A DNA stretch of 64,000 bases from Lewinella sp. LCG006 (GTDB lineage: Bacteria; Bacteroidota; Bacteroidia; Chitinophagales; Saprospiraceae). The stretch is taken from assembly GCF_040784935.1 (NCBI RefSeq), contig NZ_CP160680.1, positions 2,285,501 through 2,349,500 of the forward strand, in the 5' to 3' direction. A program made the position numbers and the translations under genes. A model generated the notes under the pieces. The model was not told the origin of the DNA and ran no database searches. It saw only the letters and a list, made by a program, of their open reading frames with translations. Each line of letters opens with the position of its first letter. Within the stretch, counting starts at the first letter, position 1. Of this stretch, positions 50,297 to 54,773 are shown one piece after another.

Positions 50297-50466
50297 TTTT
50301 TGGGGAACTTGTCGTGTTAGCGAAACGGATGTATGAGCTCTTGCTTACAGGATGAGAGGGTTTATGTGATTTTAATGCTTAAATTTAGGTTATGGTGCTT
50401 AAATCTGGCCTGGGTACAGTGCGAGGAACGAGGCTTGTCGGTCAAGCTTTGTTGTGTGCTGCCCAA

Positions 50467-50832
50467 TTATTCTTCTCCATCCTCTGGTTTCTCATATTCA
50501 TAAGAATATCCGTAACCAAAATTGTGCTTTATATTATAGGCCCGATTAAGCACTAAACCAATTAAGGGGATTTCATTTTTTGAAAGAAGATCAATGGCAC
50601 TTCTAAGAGTTTCTTCGTTAGAATTATGAAAGGAGTTTACAAAGATTACCCCATCTGTATTTTTCCCAATTACTATTGCATCAGCAACCATTAGTATAGG
50701 TGGAGTATCAATAAGTATTAAATCATATTCATTTTGGAGAATAGATACTAATCCTTTAAACCTTTCTAAGCTCAAGATTTCCATTGTGTTATACCCGTCC
50801 CTAAGTGGTTTGGGCGTATACAGAAGTCCCAC
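50467..50832 (-). pseudogene. Tyrosine autokinase (BY-kinase), 3' fragment cut off by IS630
   Basis: C-terminal ~107 codons of the interrupted kinase: NTMEILSLERFKGL, Walker B YDLILIDTPPILMVADA, and a tyrosine-rich tail (FGYGYSYEYEKPEDGEE) that would be the autophosphorylation cluster. The open frame continues 14 codons into the IS end, with a possible GTG start, but those codons belong to the inverted repeat. Joining to the 5' fragment restores a 464-residue protein. Confidence 0.9.
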
Positions 50833-51899
50833 CTACTGAACGAAAATTCAACGTTAGTAGCCTGCGTAACTCTGACTTGTGTGACTTAGTGTCATTGAGA
50901 AAATCAATTATTCCGTCTTTGAATTTTGAATACGTATCGTAGTAAATAGAGCTGATGACTTTTTTACGCATAAACTTCCAAAGCCGCTCTATTAGATTCA
51001 AATTAGGAGAATAAGGGGGTAGAAATACAAATTCTATGCGCTGATCAGCGGCCCAGTCCTGGAGCATTTTATTGCGATTATAGCGGGCATTATCGCAGAT
51101 CAGATATATTTTCTTCTTTGGATGTTTCTTCAATAATTGCCGGCACAGCCGTTGGGTAGACTGTGCATTGATAGAATCAGTGATGTCATAAACCAGGTGC
51201 TCAGGCTTAAGTGCATTGATCGCACCGTTGATATTTACCCGTTTACGACCGCTATTACAGTCCACCTCAAAGTCTCGGCCCTTGCGTATCCAAGCTCTCC
51301 CCGTTTTGGTATTATGGGTGGGATGACAGCCATCAGCGTAGTATACTACTGCTTCTCCTTGTACGGCTTGTTCCAAAAGTTCGGGCAGTACGTCATCTAG
51401 AAAATCCAGCTGATCTTGTTCGTTAGCTTTGCTGGCTACTGCCTTGGTCTGCTTGTATACAAAGCCAATGCGATGCAGGAGCTGAGTCATACCAGATACC
51501 GAATAAATAACGCCAAAGGTTACTTGAACATACTCACAAATGGAAGCGGCTTCTTCGTACAAGTTCTCTTCCAAGTGAGCTGTCAAGAGTAAAATCTCTT
51601 CCTCGTTCAGTTTTCCTGAATAGGGCGTAAACCCATCCAAGAGGTAAGCCGTCAATCCCTTTTCATAAAAGGCTTTCGCGTAACGTCTGATGGTATTATC
51701 ATCCAAACCCAGCGCAGCCTCAATGACCTTGATCTTATGTCCCTGATGCAACATAATCAAGACCGTAACCTTGCGGAATTGACGCGGGGGCAAATTCGGA
51801 TGCTTCTGAATTTGACGTAATTGATCGTACTCGGATTGACTTAGCTTGATTTTCACGCCAAAAAATACGAATTTTTCCCAAACTACTTAGTGACGGGTA
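50792..51899 (-). mobile_element. Complete IS630-family insertion sequence, 1108 bp
   Basis: Terminal inverted repeats run TACCCGTC(A/C)CTAAGT at both ends (left 50792, right ending 51899), 23 bp with two mismatches, and the element is flanked by a TA duplication at 50790-50791 and 51900-51901, the hallmark of IS630/Tc1-type insertion. It carries one transposase gene that ends inside the left repeat. Removing the element plus one TA copy restores the host gene frame exactly, so insertion is recent or the host gene was intact at the time. Confidence 0.93.
50801..51856 (-). CDS. IS630-family DDE transposase
   Basis: 351 residues starting with GTG at 51856. Helix-turn-helix N-terminal part (FRKVTVLIMLHQGHKIKVIEAALGLDDNTIRRY; short form AALGLDDNTIRRYAKAF), then a DDE domain with YADGCHPTHN (first Asp), LICDNARYN (second Asp) and LPPYSPNLNLIERLWKFMRK (Glu). 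Single uninterrupted frame without programmed frameshift. Looks intact. Confidence 0.95.
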   Translation of the reverse strand: MKIKLSQSEYDQLRQIQKHPNLPPRQFRKVTVLIMLHQGHKIKVIEAALGLDDNTIRRYAKAFYEKGLTAYLLDGFTPYSGKLNEEEILLLTAHLEENLYEEAASICEYVQVTFGVIYSVSGMTQLLHRIGFVYKQTKAVASKANEQDQLDFLDDVLPELLEQAVQGEAVVYYADGCHPTHNTKTGRAWIRKGRDFEVDCNSGRKRVNINGAINALKPEHLVYDITDSINAQSTQRLCRQLLKKHPKKKIYLICDNARYNRNKMLQDWAADQRIEFVFLPPYSPNLNLIERLWKFMRKKVISSIYYDTYSKFKDGIIDFLNDTKSHKSELRRLLTLNFRSVGGTSVYAQTT

Positions 51900-52971
51900 T
51901 AGTATGAATATTTCCTGAAAAAATCATATCTAACTTATCACGGCCTTCATAGCTATATAGAATTTCCTTTATCTCAACATTGCCATATTGAAGGTATTCA
52001 GAAAGGCCTAAATTTTTCTTATCAGTATTATAACTTTGGTTTACAGTTCTTCTAAGGTGAGGTCTTCTTAAATCGGCATCAATCAATAAAACTCTCTTAC
52101 TCTGAGAAACAAGAAGGGCTAAATTATAACAAAATGAAGTTTTACCATCCCCTGCCAATGAGCTTGTCACACTAAATAGTTTCTTCTCATAATAGTTTGT
52201 TTGATGTCGTAGGTTCAGTTCAATATAACGAAGGCCTTCACTATACATAGTTCTACTTCCTTTAAAATGGAAAGGTTCCTTCCCTCTCTTAACAGTTCCA
52301 AGAGGACCTAAAAAGTTAATATCTAATTTTTTAAATTGAGAAACATCAAAAATTCGCCCCGTCACTGAAAAGAAAAGAACTCTAACAAAAAATAAGGATA
52401 CTAAGATTGCAATTAGGTTTAAGTAATCTGAATTAATCTTTTCTATCACTCCATATCTTTCCAGTAATCTAACATTACTGCCCAAAAAATCTAGCTGCCT
52501 GTTAACTATGGCGTCAAGTTGATTTGAATATTCTTTTATTTTTCTTTTTTTACTCACCTCATCAAATAAATCTTTAACGAAAAATACTTCGGTAGAAATA
52601 GAGAGTAAATTTTCGTTTAGAACTACACTTACTTTTCCTAGATCAAAGCCTAAAGACTTTTTTTCTAACTGAGTTCGAATATAGTCACCACTAGTTAAGT
52701 TTACATTTAACAACTTAGCATATGTTAAGACATCAGAATAGCTGTCTTCTATTTTTGAAATAGGCAAAACCACGTAGTCCTTCTTTATATTACAAGTCAA
52801 ATTTCTTTCAAGAAATAAATATGACAGTAGCAGTATAATGACGATTAACCAGATGTATCTATCTTTTCGCAATACGTAACTAATTAAAGGAATGAGTTTT
52901 TTAAAAAACTCATTCAGTTGACTCCAAAATTGTACTGATAGAAATTCCTTTGACATTTTTGCAAAACTCAT
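51883..52971 (-). pseudogene. Tyrosine autokinase (BY-kinase), 5' fragment cut off by IS630
   Basis: About 357 native codons from the ATG at 52971 to the insertion, then five IS codons and a stop. Two membrane helices (YIWLIVIILLLSYLFL near 45-60; LIAILVSLFFVRVLFFSV near 205-222) enclose a ~140-residue outer domain, much shorter than the Wzz-type domain of Wzc. The kinase begins with Walker A SSLAGDGKTS and Walker A' VLLIDADLRRP. It is AT-rich and no capsule genes flank it, so it is an orphan, now disrupted. Confidence 0.88.
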
Positions 52972-53001
52972 TATTACTCCTTCTATATTACTTCGCTGCA
53001 A

Positions 53002-53487
53002 ATCTCAGCCTGAAGATAAGATTATCGAAAATATTTAGTTCCGACAACATCTCAAATTAATTTCCATCCCTAATTCCACCTTATATTCTACTATAAGCCT
53101 CTTCTAATTTGCCTATAGAAGACTACTTGTAGCTATTTATAATCATATGTAATGGCATACAACGACAAGCCCTGCATCCGCCATTCTGCTTGAGGCAGGA
53201 ATGGCGGATGCAGGGAAATTAAATGATGCCGCCGGCTTTTACTATGGGCTTTCTATTTTTTTGCATGTCCTTTTCAGGCTTCCTGCCCACTCGATGCTAG
53301 ACTAAATATAGTTTTTTGGGGGATTTTTCCGGTCATCATTTTGGCGGAACACTACACTGGGAAGTACTAGCAATTAAAGATAACTGTATGTTTATCTTTA
53401 TGAACTCATTTTTAGTGATTTAGCAGTATTTATAGTGACTTCGTGTCGCACCGCTGGTAGCTAAGTTAGGCACCGTTTCTCTTTTCT
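53002..53487. other. Non-coding AT-rich gap with two palindromes
   Basis: No gene seen in 486 bp. A strong palindrome lies at 53170-53215: CCCTGCATCCGCCATT with CTGC, loop, then GCAG-G-AATGGCGGATGCAGGG; the GC content of its stem is far above its surroundings. A second, smaller one at 53375-53400 is TAAAGATAA / TTATCTTTA with an 8-base loop and may end the nuclease-protease transcript. The first may be an inserted hairpin or a terminator for one of the two neighbours. Confidence 0.5.
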
Positions 53488-54729
53488 TTAATTGTACTCT
53501 CGAAACTCATCTTTATTTTGATCAATAATCTGTCCAATAGACTTAAGCCGAGAGTGATTATCGATTTGGTCTAGATCATTTAACCGGTATACAACGCTCG
53601 TCTTTGTCGTGTAAAAATAATAAGCCAACTTTTCCACCAATTGATAAAAGGATTTTCTGTTAGCCCATTGATCATCTAGGTATATCTTACCTACTCTCAT
53701 CCCCAACTGTTCTTGGAACATGAATAACCTTGTCAATAATGAGATGTCAGGTAAAATAATTGACGACGCAAAACAATTAGCTTGCCATTCAAGCCAATTT
53801 CTGTCATTGGTTAAAACGTACCTCATACTGCTAAATGAGAATTCAGCATCTGTAAATGCTTCATATTCAATTTGGCTTAGCTCGATTTCGCTATGTAAAA
53901 GTATATGGCCAAGCTCATGTGCTAAGATAAAAGGATAGGATCTACCTTGAGACACCTGATTTGACACGTGAATGACACCATTCTCTAAATCCGTAGCTGC
54001 ACGAATTTTCCTACCTGCCGAATCTTTTCCTAAACTGTTAACTTTTTGAATACCAACATTGAGTTCACCGGTTATATATTTTTCTAACTCACGTAATGGG
54101 AGCTTTCTCTTTCTCTCCAAAATATACTGATCAATCCTATTTATCAGTGACTTGGCAATCCTATTAATATCATTCCTTGAAAGTCTCTCTATTTGAGATC
54201 TAATACTAGCTCTATCACTAATAGGATTAAGGACTTTTTGAAGTTGATTATCAATAATTGAAAACTCATCAGTTGGCGAAATAACTCTGAATTTCCTCGT
54301 GCTACTATGCAGTACTATTTTGTAGCTATTGTCATCATATACTTTTATGTACATAATACCTCTATTCTTCGCGTAAAGAGGTCCCGTTCCTTGAAGATTT
54401 GCATTGGTAATGAACACAGCTTTAGCATTTAAGCCTGAAACCTGTGTAACTTTCTTATCAAACTCTTCTAAATCATTAATTGGAATTGGGTGGCTGTAAT
54501 TCTTGCATTCTACCACAAACAGTAACATGTAGTTTGCTGCTCCTGGTGGCCACACTTCAATCGACAGATCAAAGATGATATCGCTTTCTCGTTCTTTAGA
54601 ATAGTATTTGGGTTTCTTTCTTAGCTTACAATACTTCCCATCCATACCTAATATTCCTTCATCTATTGCCTTCTCCAAAAGGAGATAAACTCTTTCCTCA
54701 AATTCATTTCCTTTTTTGGTCGTATTCAT
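53488..54729 (-). CDS. Fusion of PD-(D/E)XK nuclease-like domain and ImmA/IrrE metalloprotease
   Basis: 413 residues. N-terminal ~1-150 resembles Mrr-type restriction endonucleases: FEERVYLLLEKA, ESDIIFDLSIEVW with Asp50, and FVVECKNY with Glu74 and Lys76, then VTQVSGLNAKAVFITN. C-terminal ~230-400 is an ImmA/IrrE (DUF955) metallopeptidase with zinc motif H271ELGH275 in FILAHELGHILLHSE, and a downstream Glu314 in WLEWQANCFAS, as third ligand. ImmA cleaves repressors in mobile elements and IrrE drives DNA-damage responses. No antitoxin or helix-turn-helix gene lies directly beside it. AT-rich; likely horizontally acquired. The combination suggests nucleic-acid sensing or cleavage coupled to proteolysis (inference). 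Confidence 0.83.
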   Translation of the reverse strand: MNTTKKGNEFEERVYLLLEKAIDEGILGMDGKYCKLRKKPKYYSKERESDIIFDLSIEVWPPGAANYMLLFVVECKNYSHPIPINDLEEFDKKVTQVSGLNAKAVFITNANLQGTGPLYAKNRGIMYIKVYDDNSYKIVLHSSTRKFRVISPTDEFSIIDNQLQKVLNPISDRASIRSQIERLSRNDINRIAKSLINRIDQYILERKRKLPLRELEKYITGELNVGIQKVNSLGKDSAGRKIRAATDLENGVIHVSNQVSQGRSYPFILAHELGHILLHSEIELSQIEYEAFTDAEFSFSSMRYVLTNDRNWLEWQANCFASSIILPDISLLTRLFMFQEQLGMRVGKIYLDDQWANRKSFYQLVEKLAYYFYTTKTSVVYRLNDLDQIDNHSRLKSIGQIIDQNKDEFREYN

Positions 54730-54773
54730 TAATTTATAAAGTATTTATCTTCTTACGTCACCTTACGCCCCCC

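What the first reader, a model, noticed from the sequence alone, without database searches (positions are those of the whole stretch)
53488..54729. Nuclease-like domain fused to an ImmA/IrrE metalloprotease in an AT-rich island
Asp50...Glu74-x-Lys76 fits a PD-(D/E)XK active site and H271ExxH275...Glu314 an ImmA/IrrE active site, both apparently intact, in one chain. In known ImmA/IrrE systems the protease cuts a repressor after DNA damage, whereas here a nuclease or nucleic-acid sensor is built in. No repressor or partner gene is directly adjacent, so it might be a single-gene defence or damage-response device.
Basis: partly seen in the sequence, partly recalled or inferred. Interest (0 to 1): 0.68.

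Follow-up and report, generated by a model that had tools for sequence, protein, structure and literature searches.

The report
One-gene DNA-cutter fused to protease
A roaming bacterial and phage gene makes one protein that joins a DNA-cutting domain to a stress-responsive protease, with both active sites preserved in distant relatives, so it looks like a self-contained defence or damage-response switch whose job is still untested.

Summary
The 413-aa ORF (minus strand, 53488-54729) is real. It joins an N-terminal Mrr-type PD-(D/E)XK nuclease domain (residues 1-140) to an ImmA/IrrE (M78) metalloprotease domain (181-390) through a poorly conserved linker. Fold comparison supports both halves: AF1548 and Can2 for the nuclease, CapP and IrrE/PprI for the protease. 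In 17 fused homologues (the window's phylum, Acinetobacter-labelled records, viral contigs) D54, E74, K76, H271, E272, H275 and E314 are all invariant. The fusion is sparse (4 of 395 genomes in each of two draws, lower bounds) and looks mobile; two diverged T7-like, integrase-bearing phages carry it at the same site. No partner gene recurs across most loci. An HTH gene lies within 800 bp in 2 of 17 seen, one being a CI-type repressor directly upstream in a Mu-like prophage. Best reading: a single-gene conditional nuclease whose built-in ImmA protease is the switch. Main rival: an anti-repressor protease with a nuclease-fold DNA sensor. No function was tested; my searches showed no paper on the architecture. 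New variant of a known kind.

The parts
53488..54729 (-). Fused gene: Mrr-type PD-(D/E)XK nuclease domain + ImmA/IrrE (M78) metalloprotease domain, 413 aa
   Evidence: ORF; Pfam; family; structure
54310..54729 (-). Nuclease domain, residues 1-140
   Evidence: AF2 model; VIA-align: AF1548 1y88 Z 12.8 rmsd 2.3 over 110 residues, NucS-type 2vld Z 10.9, Can2 7bdv Z 10.7, Card1 6wxw Z 9.6
54568..54570 (-).
   Evidence: 17 of 17 fused homologues
54502..54510 (-). Glu74-Cys75-Lys76, ExK motif of the nuclease
   Evidence: E74 and K76 invariant in 17 of 17
54190..54309 (-). Linker, residues 141-180, low model confidence; 35-83 aa in homologues
   Evidence: pLDDT under 50 at 142-178; lengths
53560..54189 (-). 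ImmA/IrrE metalloprotease domain with C-terminal helices, residues 181-390
   Evidence: PF06114 35.9 bits; CapP 7t5t Z 12.9, IrrE 3dti Z 12.2, PprI-ssDNA 8sln Z 11.9
53905..53919 (-). H271-E-L-G-H275 zinc-site motif
   Evidence: H271, E272, H275 invariant in 17 of 17
53788..53790 (-). Glu314, third zinc ligand (E-x-Q-A-N)
   Evidence: invariant in 17 of 17; role as ligand recalled from the ImmA/IrrE family
53659..53676 (-). D352-x-Q-x-x-N357 family motif, role unknown
   Evidence: D352 and N357 invariant in 17 of 17; Q354 in 16 of 17
50309..54762 (.). Variable interval holding the gene, between the resident caspase-like gene and a 110-aa gene
   Evidence: homology to sister genome G002 stops at 50308 and resumes at 54763; G002 has other genes there; in G001 the caspase gene is next to the 1070-aa gene. 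G003's contig shows only the caspase side

Best explanation
A horizontally mobile single-gene effector. The N-terminal Mrr-type PD-(D/E)XK domain is the weapon (a DNA nuclease), and the C-terminal ImmA/IrrE metalloprotease is its switch. Proposed sequence of events: the protein is made but held inactive; DNA damage or phage-derived single-stranded DNA activates the ImmA domain, as reported for its relatives CapP and PprI; the protease then frees or licenses the nuclease by cutting within the chain or linker, or between subunits, or by cutting an inhibitor elsewhere; the nuclease attacks DNA, stopping the invader or the infected cell. Shown by computation here: the two-domain architecture, both folds, invariance of both active sites, spread across distant hosts and phage contigs, and no partner gene recurring across most loci. 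Inferred: mobility (from scattered sites and carriers), DNA as the substrate, ssDNA as the trigger, the protease controlling the nuclease, and the anti-phage or stress role.
For: Both active sites are invariant in 17 of 17 fused homologues, although median pairwise identity among the 16 full-length ones is only 36% (nuclease) and 29% (protease), so both domains are probably catalytic. Synonymous change is saturated while nonsynonymous stays low in both domains of the two pairs tried (e.g. L073/L074 nuclease pS 0.78, pN 0.15). The two domains' identity matrices correlate (r 0.67, 0 of 5000 permutations), so they travel as one unit. The nuclease domain resembles Can2, Card1 and NucS-type nucleases. 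The protease resembles CapP and PprI, both reported to be ssDNA-activated (PMC10904395 passages; PMC13373217 passages). [quoted passage not shown] no such domain was found here, and the nuclease domain sits at the other end instead (inference). No gene family recurs across most loci compared. Mobile or phage-borne: two T7-like phages with an integrase, an integrase-bearing prophage, a Mu-like phage with a Mu transposase gene, a contig with a phage lysozyme gene next door, and a plasmid. Precedent that a protease can gate an antiviral nuclease: PMC12799240 (abstract and Discussion).
Against: No activity was measured. No autocleavage site is visible, and the linker varies in length (35-83 aa) and sequence. 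One homologue, L084, sits directly downstream of a CI-type repressor, which fits an anti-repressor as well or better, and L073 has an HTH_3 (HigA-like) gene nearby that my HTH profile missed, so other HTH neighbours may have been missed too. Defence-model neighbours exist at three loci (L019, L073, L054) but no enrichment control was run. The model is of middling confidence (mean pLDDT 75.8, pTM 0.51) and says nothing about how the domains touch. A PF00589 integrase was found in only 3 of 7 viral records (records may be fragments).
Confidence: 0.4

Rival explanations
1. Anti-repressor with a built-in DNA sensor: the ImmA domain cuts an HTH repressor in trans (the ImmR/ImmA, CapH/CapP, DdrO/PprI scheme), and the nuclease-fold domain recognises damaged, broken or foreign DNA and turns the protease on.
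For: In the Mu-like prophage L084 the fused gene (start placed by homology) begins 136 bp after a 120-aa CI/XRE-type repressor gene on the same strand. That repressor shows no S24 (LexA-type) domain among its Pfam matches, so a separate protease would be useful. The closest folds, CapP and PprI, do this. The window's own genome has an ordinary XRE + ImmA pair elsewhere that could share targets.
Against: The HTH profile finds a neighbour within 800 bp of 1 of 17 fused genes (L084); a Pfam check of 10 chosen proteins adds L073 (HTH_3), so at least 2 of 17. The profile finds one for 11 of 29 stand-alone ImmA entries, 9 of them on the same strand; of 8 distinct places with an ImmA under 245 aa, 7 have it on the same strand (L004, L012 and L084 helped train the profile). 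A pure sensor would not need an invariant nuclease triad. Phage positions differ: between exonuclease and portal in L083/L123, beside a lysozyme gene in L125, near an integrase in L053. A gene downstream of a prophage repressor can also be an exclusion gene, as with lambda rexAB (recalled).
Confidence: 0.27
2. Single-chain toxin-antitoxin: the ImmA domain holds the nuclease inactive mainly by binding, like ImmA-type antitoxins of RosmerTA systems, and loss of the ImmA part releases toxicity.
For: ImmA domains act as antitoxins in RosmerTA (PMC10440598 passages). PADLOC RmrA models are among the matches to the protease half. A Rhizobium plasmid copy that groups with fused proteins has lost its nuclease half and keeps the ImmA half (L022).
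Against: The zinc-site residues are invariant, which binding alone would not demand. No toxin or antitoxin family recurs across most loci compared.
Confidence: 0.15
3. Type IV-like restriction enzyme: the Mrr-type domain cuts modified or foreign DNA by itself and the ImmA domain is a secondary regulator of turnover.
For: The nuclease domain is Mrr-type; MspJI and McrBC chains appear among the fold matches at Z 7.7-8.0, a range the tool warns may mean only a common arrangement. Nuclease-only relatives exist, one (L085) beside a type I restriction specificity gene.
Against: No separate DNA-recognition or modified-base domain was found, and strict conservation of the protease suggests more than an accessory role.
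Confidence: 0.1

Closest known systems
CapP (CapH-CapP controllers of CBASS and other immune operons)
   Same: Nearest solved relative of the protease half (7t5t, Z 12.9 over 164 residues; profile E 1.9e-8); PADLOC capP E 6.9e-12
   Different: CapP is reported to cleave the HTH repressor CapH, the pair lying beside the immune operon it controls (PMC13373217 passages); here a nuclease domain is on the same chain and no HTH gene lies next to the window gene
IrrE/PprI of Deinococcus
   Same: Same metalloprotease fold (3dti Z 12.2, 8sln Z 11.9); reported to be activated by ssDNA (PMC10904395 passages)
   Different: PprI carries HTH and GAF-like domains C-terminally and cuts DdrO; the fused protein has an N-terminal nuclease, and no GAF-like domain was found
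ImmR/ImmA of ICEBs1 and TnSmu1
   Same: Mobile-element location; in L084 the order repressor then ImmA-type gene is the same
   Different: ImmA alone has no nuclease domain (recalled); the window gene has no adjacent repressor
RosmerTA (RmrA/RmrT)
   Same: ImmA-type domain tied to a possibly toxic partner activity
   Different: RosmerTA uses separate toxin and antitoxin genes, the antitoxin often with an HTH (PMC10440598 passages)
Can2/Card1 and Mrr-type PD-(D/E)XK nucleases; AF1548
   Same: Fold of residues 1-140
   Different: Can2/Card1 are switched by cyclic tetra-adenylate through a CARF domain (recalled, in line with the entry titles); here the partner is a protease domain
Nuclease-protease pairs of Hachiman, AVAST and canu (PMC12799240)
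   Same: Idea of an antiviral nuclease coupled to a protease that activates it
   Different: Those use metallo-beta-lactamase-type nucleases with trypsin-like or caspase proteases, with the nuclease in a separate gene; here a PD-(D/E)XK nuclease and a zinc metalloprotease share one chain

Membership tests
ImmA/IrrE (Peptidase_M78) | HExxH plus downstream Glu, significant family match | tested here: met
   H271, E272, H275, E314 present and invariant in 17 of 17; PF06114 35.9 bits over the cut-off of 22
ImmA/IrrE (Peptidase_M78) | Fold of CapP and IrrE | tested here: met
   VIA-align Z 12.9 and 12.2; Foldseek E 4.8e-5 and 4.0e-5
ImmA/IrrE (Peptidase_M78) | Cleaves a partner protein | not testable with these tools
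   needs biochemistry
Mrr-type PD-(D/E)XK nuclease | D...E-x-K triad conserved | tested here: met
   D54, E74, K76 in 17 of 17
Mrr-type PD-(D/E)XK nuclease | Profile match above Pfam's cut-off for this protein | tested here: not met
   Mrr_cat 13.4 bits against 21; 12 of 13 family members match at E<=0.1, best 9.2e-8; L084 shows no Mrr_cat match at E 0.01
Mrr-type PD-(D/E)XK nuclease | PD-(D/E)XK fold | tested here: met
   1y88 Z 12.8, 2vld Z 10.9, 7bdv Z 10.7
Mrr-type PD-(D/E)XK nuclease | Cuts nucleic acid | not testable with these tools
   needs biochemistry
CapH-CapP / ImmR-ImmA pair | HTH repressor gene adjacent to the window gene | tested here: not met
   none within 800 bp in the window by the HTH profile, and no Pfam match in the 110-aa gene beside it; among homologues L084 has one adjacent and L073 a HigA-like one nearby
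RosmerTA | Separate toxin gene next to the ImmA-type antitoxin gene | tested here: inconclusive
   no gene family shared by most of the loci compared, but neighbours were not tested for toxins locus by locus; L073 has a HigB toxin gene nearby
Nuclease-protease pairs of PMC12799240 | MBL-type nuclease gene with trypsin-like or caspase protease | tested here: not met
   Pfam and folds are PD-(D/E)XK and M78 instead

The most novel reading that the evidence does not exclude
A one-gene abortive-infection or superinfection-exclusion system in which a pro-nuclease carries its own activating ImmA protease: ssDNA made during infection or damage switches on the zinc protease, which cuts the chain (in cis or in a dimer) and unleashes a PD-(D/E)XK DNase. 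It would be a single-polypeptide, metalloprotease version of the recently described nuclease-protease immune pairs, carried by temperate phages and bacterial islands alike.
Probability: 0.28. Interest if true: 0.82.

Novelty: new variant of a known kind. Interest (0 to 1): 0.6.

Why it matters
ImmA/IrrE proteases link DNA damage to mobile-element induction and immunity, in the systems I read about through a separate repressor. A conserved family in which the protease is fused to an apparently active nuclease suggests a direct protease-to-nuclease circuit in a single gene. It is compact enough to clone and test at once, and it would extend proteolytically gated immunity to a metalloprotease. 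Because phages with an integrase carry it too, it also bears on inter-phage competition.

Tried and rejected
A chance open frame or assembly accident: rejected, 16 other fused homologues. Several gene copies in the same genome: rejected, one full-length copy; the second ImmA-type hit is an ordinary XRE + ImmA pair. A conserved operon partner: not found in what was compared. One search compared 13 loci (its printed output was cut in the middle) and one search compared 14, within 6 kb; L123 and L125 were in neither, and L083 and L123 share their phage backbone. Apart from that, shared neighbours were a UmuD/UmuC-like pair in L002 and L054, a SRAP-type gene in L054 and L055, ABC-type ATPases and methyltransferases, and (only) a secreted-protein match between the window and L075. 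The pooled PADLOC scan of 92 neighbours gave 34 families (25 shown), several probably generic ATPase matches, with no control, so I claim no enrichment. A second scan of 10 of the 92 assigned hits to L073, L019 and L054. Boundary repeats of an integrating element round the gene: only short imperfect repeats, apart from the terminal repeats of the neighbouring IS and a hairpin. Promoter and terminator counts were near the shuffled means. dN/dS: dS saturated, so only raw proportions are used. Tree of protease domains: too few well-supported forks to say whether the fusion arose once; 4 label changes on the best tree, 2 forced by starred branches. Viral scan with the single protein found nothing; scans with alignments did. 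BFVD fold search gave IrrE-type hits but no fused protein that I could identify. The fold list also holds M. tuberculosis transcriptional regulators with an ImmA-like part (6d2s and others, Z 11.2-11.8), not pursued. A PDB sequence search with the L073 HTH protein found nothing. Second structure job not used.

Literature: ten searches were answered. Only the listed top papers were looked at (e.g. 20 of 1,322), as titles and abstract starts; none describes an Mrr-ImmA fusion. The library is open-licence only, and domain databases may list the architecture.

Rows dropped or special: L078 lacks the first 46 residues (contig end), so N-terminal columns count 16 rows and its upstream side was not seen; L055 shows only about 650 bp upstream. 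L082 (cut by the contig end) and L020 (99.3% identical to L021) are not in the 17. In one search the stand-alone set was my choice of 32 loci with an ImmA-type match; 3 without a clear motif (L005, L044, L050) were dropped although L005 does have an HTH gene beside it; L013/L027 and L015/L036 are the same places, so 11 of 29 is 10 of 27 distinct (8 of 27 on the same strand). The opposite-strand hits are L011 and L051; by eye the L011 one is the start of an hsdM-like gene. The profile missed the HTH_3 gene near L073, so both counts are lower bounds.

Full report
WHAT WAS CLAIMED AND WHAT IS THERE. The ORF at 53488-54729 is open for 413 codons on the minus strand from an ATG. The window lies in a 7.5-Mb single-contig genome that holds one full-length copy. 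Pfam gives Peptidase_M78 (ImmA/IrrE) over residues 241-336 at 35.9 bits, above the cut-off of 22, and a sub-threshold Mrr_cat match over residues 70-116 (13.4 bits, cut-off 21). PADLOC gives capP (6.9e-12) and several RmrA models for the protease half, and a CARF-PDDEXK model for residues 68-131 (5.2e-4). PHROGs gives phage metallo-protease and regulator families; NCBIfam gives only a weak antitoxin match far below its cut-off.

HOMOLOGUES. L078 is cut by a contig end. The phylum is not told by a call; the Por_Secre_tail and SprB domains of a neighbouring gene and the Allomuricauda and Spirosoma homologues suggest Bacteroidota. The fusion is rare. Of 148 genomes in the relatives search, 6 (own included) have any match and only the own genome's is full-length. 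Of 395 drawn from the phylum, 4 (own included) hold the fusion (one of them partial). Of 395 drawn from the class, 4 (own included) do (66 have some match, nearly all to one domain). At most 4 candidates were scored in most of those genomes, so these are lower bounds. The three genus-mates have no match.

CONSERVATION. Across the 17 these residues are invariant: R47, D54, E58, E74, K76, F90, K103, I253, F267, H271, E272, H275, L278, E314, Q316, A317, N318, F320, D352 and N357. G7, E11 and Y42 are invariant in the 16 that cover them. The nuclease triad is therefore D54...E74-x-K76. In 13 members scanned singly, M78 matches 13 and Mrr_cat 12 at E<=0.1, best 1.7e-15 and 9.2e-8; L084, scanned later, shows M78 but no Mrr_cat at E 0.01. 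Among the 16 full-length members pairwise identity is 20-71% (median 36%) in the nuclease domain and 18-64% (median 29%) in the protease domain, and the two identity matrices correlate at r = 0.67, reached by 0 of 5000 permutations. The linker runs from 35 to 83 residues. Nuclease-only relatives (L057, L085, L003) and ImmA-only relatives with a similar D-x-[QE]-x-x-N tail (L011, L056) also occur. L085 and L003 have Glu at the D54 column.

STRUCTURE. AlphaFold2 with 11 permitted rows gave mean pLDDT 75.8 and pTM 0.51; residues 142-178 and 283-306 are unreliable. The N-terminal part has the helix and strand order of a PD-(D/E)XK domain: D54 precedes strand 55-59, and E74/K76 close strand 69-76. 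VIA-align on Foldseek's top 1000 gives, for residues 6-135, AF1548 (1y88, Z 12.8, rmsd 2.3, 110 residues); further nuclease matches are 2vld (Z 10.9), Can2 (7bdv, Z 10.7) and Card1 (6wxw, Z 9.6). For residues 183-407 it gives CapP (7t5t, Z 12.9, rmsd 4.7, 164 residues), then IrrE (3dti, Z 12.2) and PprI with ssDNA (8sln, Z 11.9). A family profile finds CapP at 1.9e-8 and IrrE at 0.0014. A nuclease-only profile finds only Cdn1, weakly (E 1.1), aligned at its ECK motif. Interdomain geometry was not assessed.

NEIGHBOURHOOD. In the window the gene lies in a variable interval. DNA homology with sister genome G002 stops at 50308 and resumes at 54763, and G002 carries different genes there; in G001 the caspase-like gene sits directly beside the 1070-aa surface-protein gene. 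G003 shows only the caspase side. All-against-all comparison of neighbours (13 loci, partly cut in print; 14 loci; L123 and L125 in neither) found no gene family shared by most loci. A home-made HTH profile finds an HTH gene within 800 bp of 1 of 17 fused genes, against 11 of 29 stand-alone ImmA entries (9 on the same strand; 10 of 27 distinct places). Of 8 distinct places with an ImmA under 245 aa, 7 have it on the same strand and the eighth on the opposite strand. The profile was trained partly on L004, L012 and L084, and it missed an HTH_3 (HigA-like) gene 513 bp from the fused gene in L073, so at least 2 of 17 fused genes have an HTH gene nearby. L084 is a Mu-like prophage: a Mu-type transposase gene (Pfam Mu-transpos_C) and an HTH_35 gene run leftward, and a 120-aa CI/XRE-type repressor followed 136 bp later by the fused gene (start placed by homology) runs rightward. 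L083 and L123 look like T7-like phages with an integrase at one end; each carries the fused gene before the portal gene, and in L083 the gene on its other side is a 5'-3' exonuclease. The fused proteins are 54% identical and the portals 76%. Integrase matches were found in 3 of the 7 viral records. L125 lies before a phage lysozyme gene. L053 lies near an integrase and a CII-type gene. L019 lies next to an nSTAND3 protein with a just-sub-threshold Mrr_cat match (PADLOC PDC-S73). L073 lies next to a HigB/HigA-like pair matching PD-Lambda-2 models. These are single cases without an enrichment control.

MECHANISM. Strict conservation of both active sites argues that the nuclease is an effector, not only a fold used to bind DNA, and that the protease is catalytic, not only a scaffold. 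For the nearest protease relatives, the passages I read report activation by ssDNA and cleavage of an HTH repressor (PprI-DdrO: PMC10904395; CapP-CapH: PMC13373217), and for ImmA cleavage of ImmR after DNA damage (PMC10233336). ImmA-type domains also serve as antitoxins in RosmerTA (PMC10440598 passages), and an ImmA/IrrE peptidase is listed among the domains found in a functional selection for defence loci (PMC9519451 passages). In Hachiman and AVAST a protease activates a pro-nuclease (PMC12799240 abstract and Discussion). Putting these together, my first choice (0.40) is a one-gene conditional nuclease with the ImmA domain as switch. The second (0.27) is an anti-repressor with a nuclease-fold sensor, best supported by L084. 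The third (0.15) is a single-chain toxin-antitoxin. The fourth (0.10) is a restriction enzyme with an accessory ImmA part. Trigger, substrates and benefit are inferred, none shown.

NOVELTY. Each domain family is known; the combination, its invariance and its spread over phages and bacteria are what I take to be new. Ten paper searches (only the capped listings read) showed no paper on this fusion. I rate it a new variant of a known kind, interest 0.6.

Noticed in passing
window 50467-53001: A Wzc-like (name recalled; AAA_31 match below cut-off) gene appears split into two fragments (51883-53001 and 50467-50832) by an IS630-type (DDE_3) transposase gene (50801-51856) with 25-nt terminal inverted repeats at 50790-50814 and 51877-51901.
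   Followed up: partly
window 53170-53215: Perfect 17-nt inverted repeat (hairpin) just downstream of the fused gene; one-mismatch copies occur at one other place in the genome.
   Followed up: partly
L028 1510-2904 and L029 1501-2958: Another ImmA fusion: an FTCD_C (formiminotransferase-cyclodeaminase) domain joined to Peptidase_M78, in two genomes of the window's class; in L028 an ATPase-like gene (by eye) lies next to it.
   Followed up: partly
L080 9079-10081 (own genome, C1 about 2079078-2080080): Ordinary XRE-like (108 aa) + ImmA (191 aa) gene pair in the window's own genome, a possible target or counterpart.
   Followed up: no
L056 7965-10378: Stand-alone ImmA of the related subfamily directly upstream of a reverse-transcriptase gene (RVT_1) in a viral contig.
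   Followed up: partly
L003 570-2536: Nuclease-only relative (254 aa) with Glu in place of Asp54, preceded on the same strand by a 329-residue open frame of untested family; a possible two-gene version.
   Followed up: no
L022 5010-5753: Rhizobium plasmid copy that groups with fused proteins but has lost the nuclease half; a transposase gene lies just upstream.
   Followed up: partly
L020 and L021 source records: Likely mislabelled records: a 4.09-Mb Acinetobacter 'plasmid' and 'phage MD-2021a' contigs carrying nrdA, nrdB and metE genes look chromosomal.
   Followed up: no
L002 3428-5130 and L054 2618-4310: UmuD/UmuC-like pairs (named by eye) lie within about 6 kb of the fused gene in two unrelated loci, and SRAP-type genes near it in L054 and L055; may be chance.
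   Followed up: no
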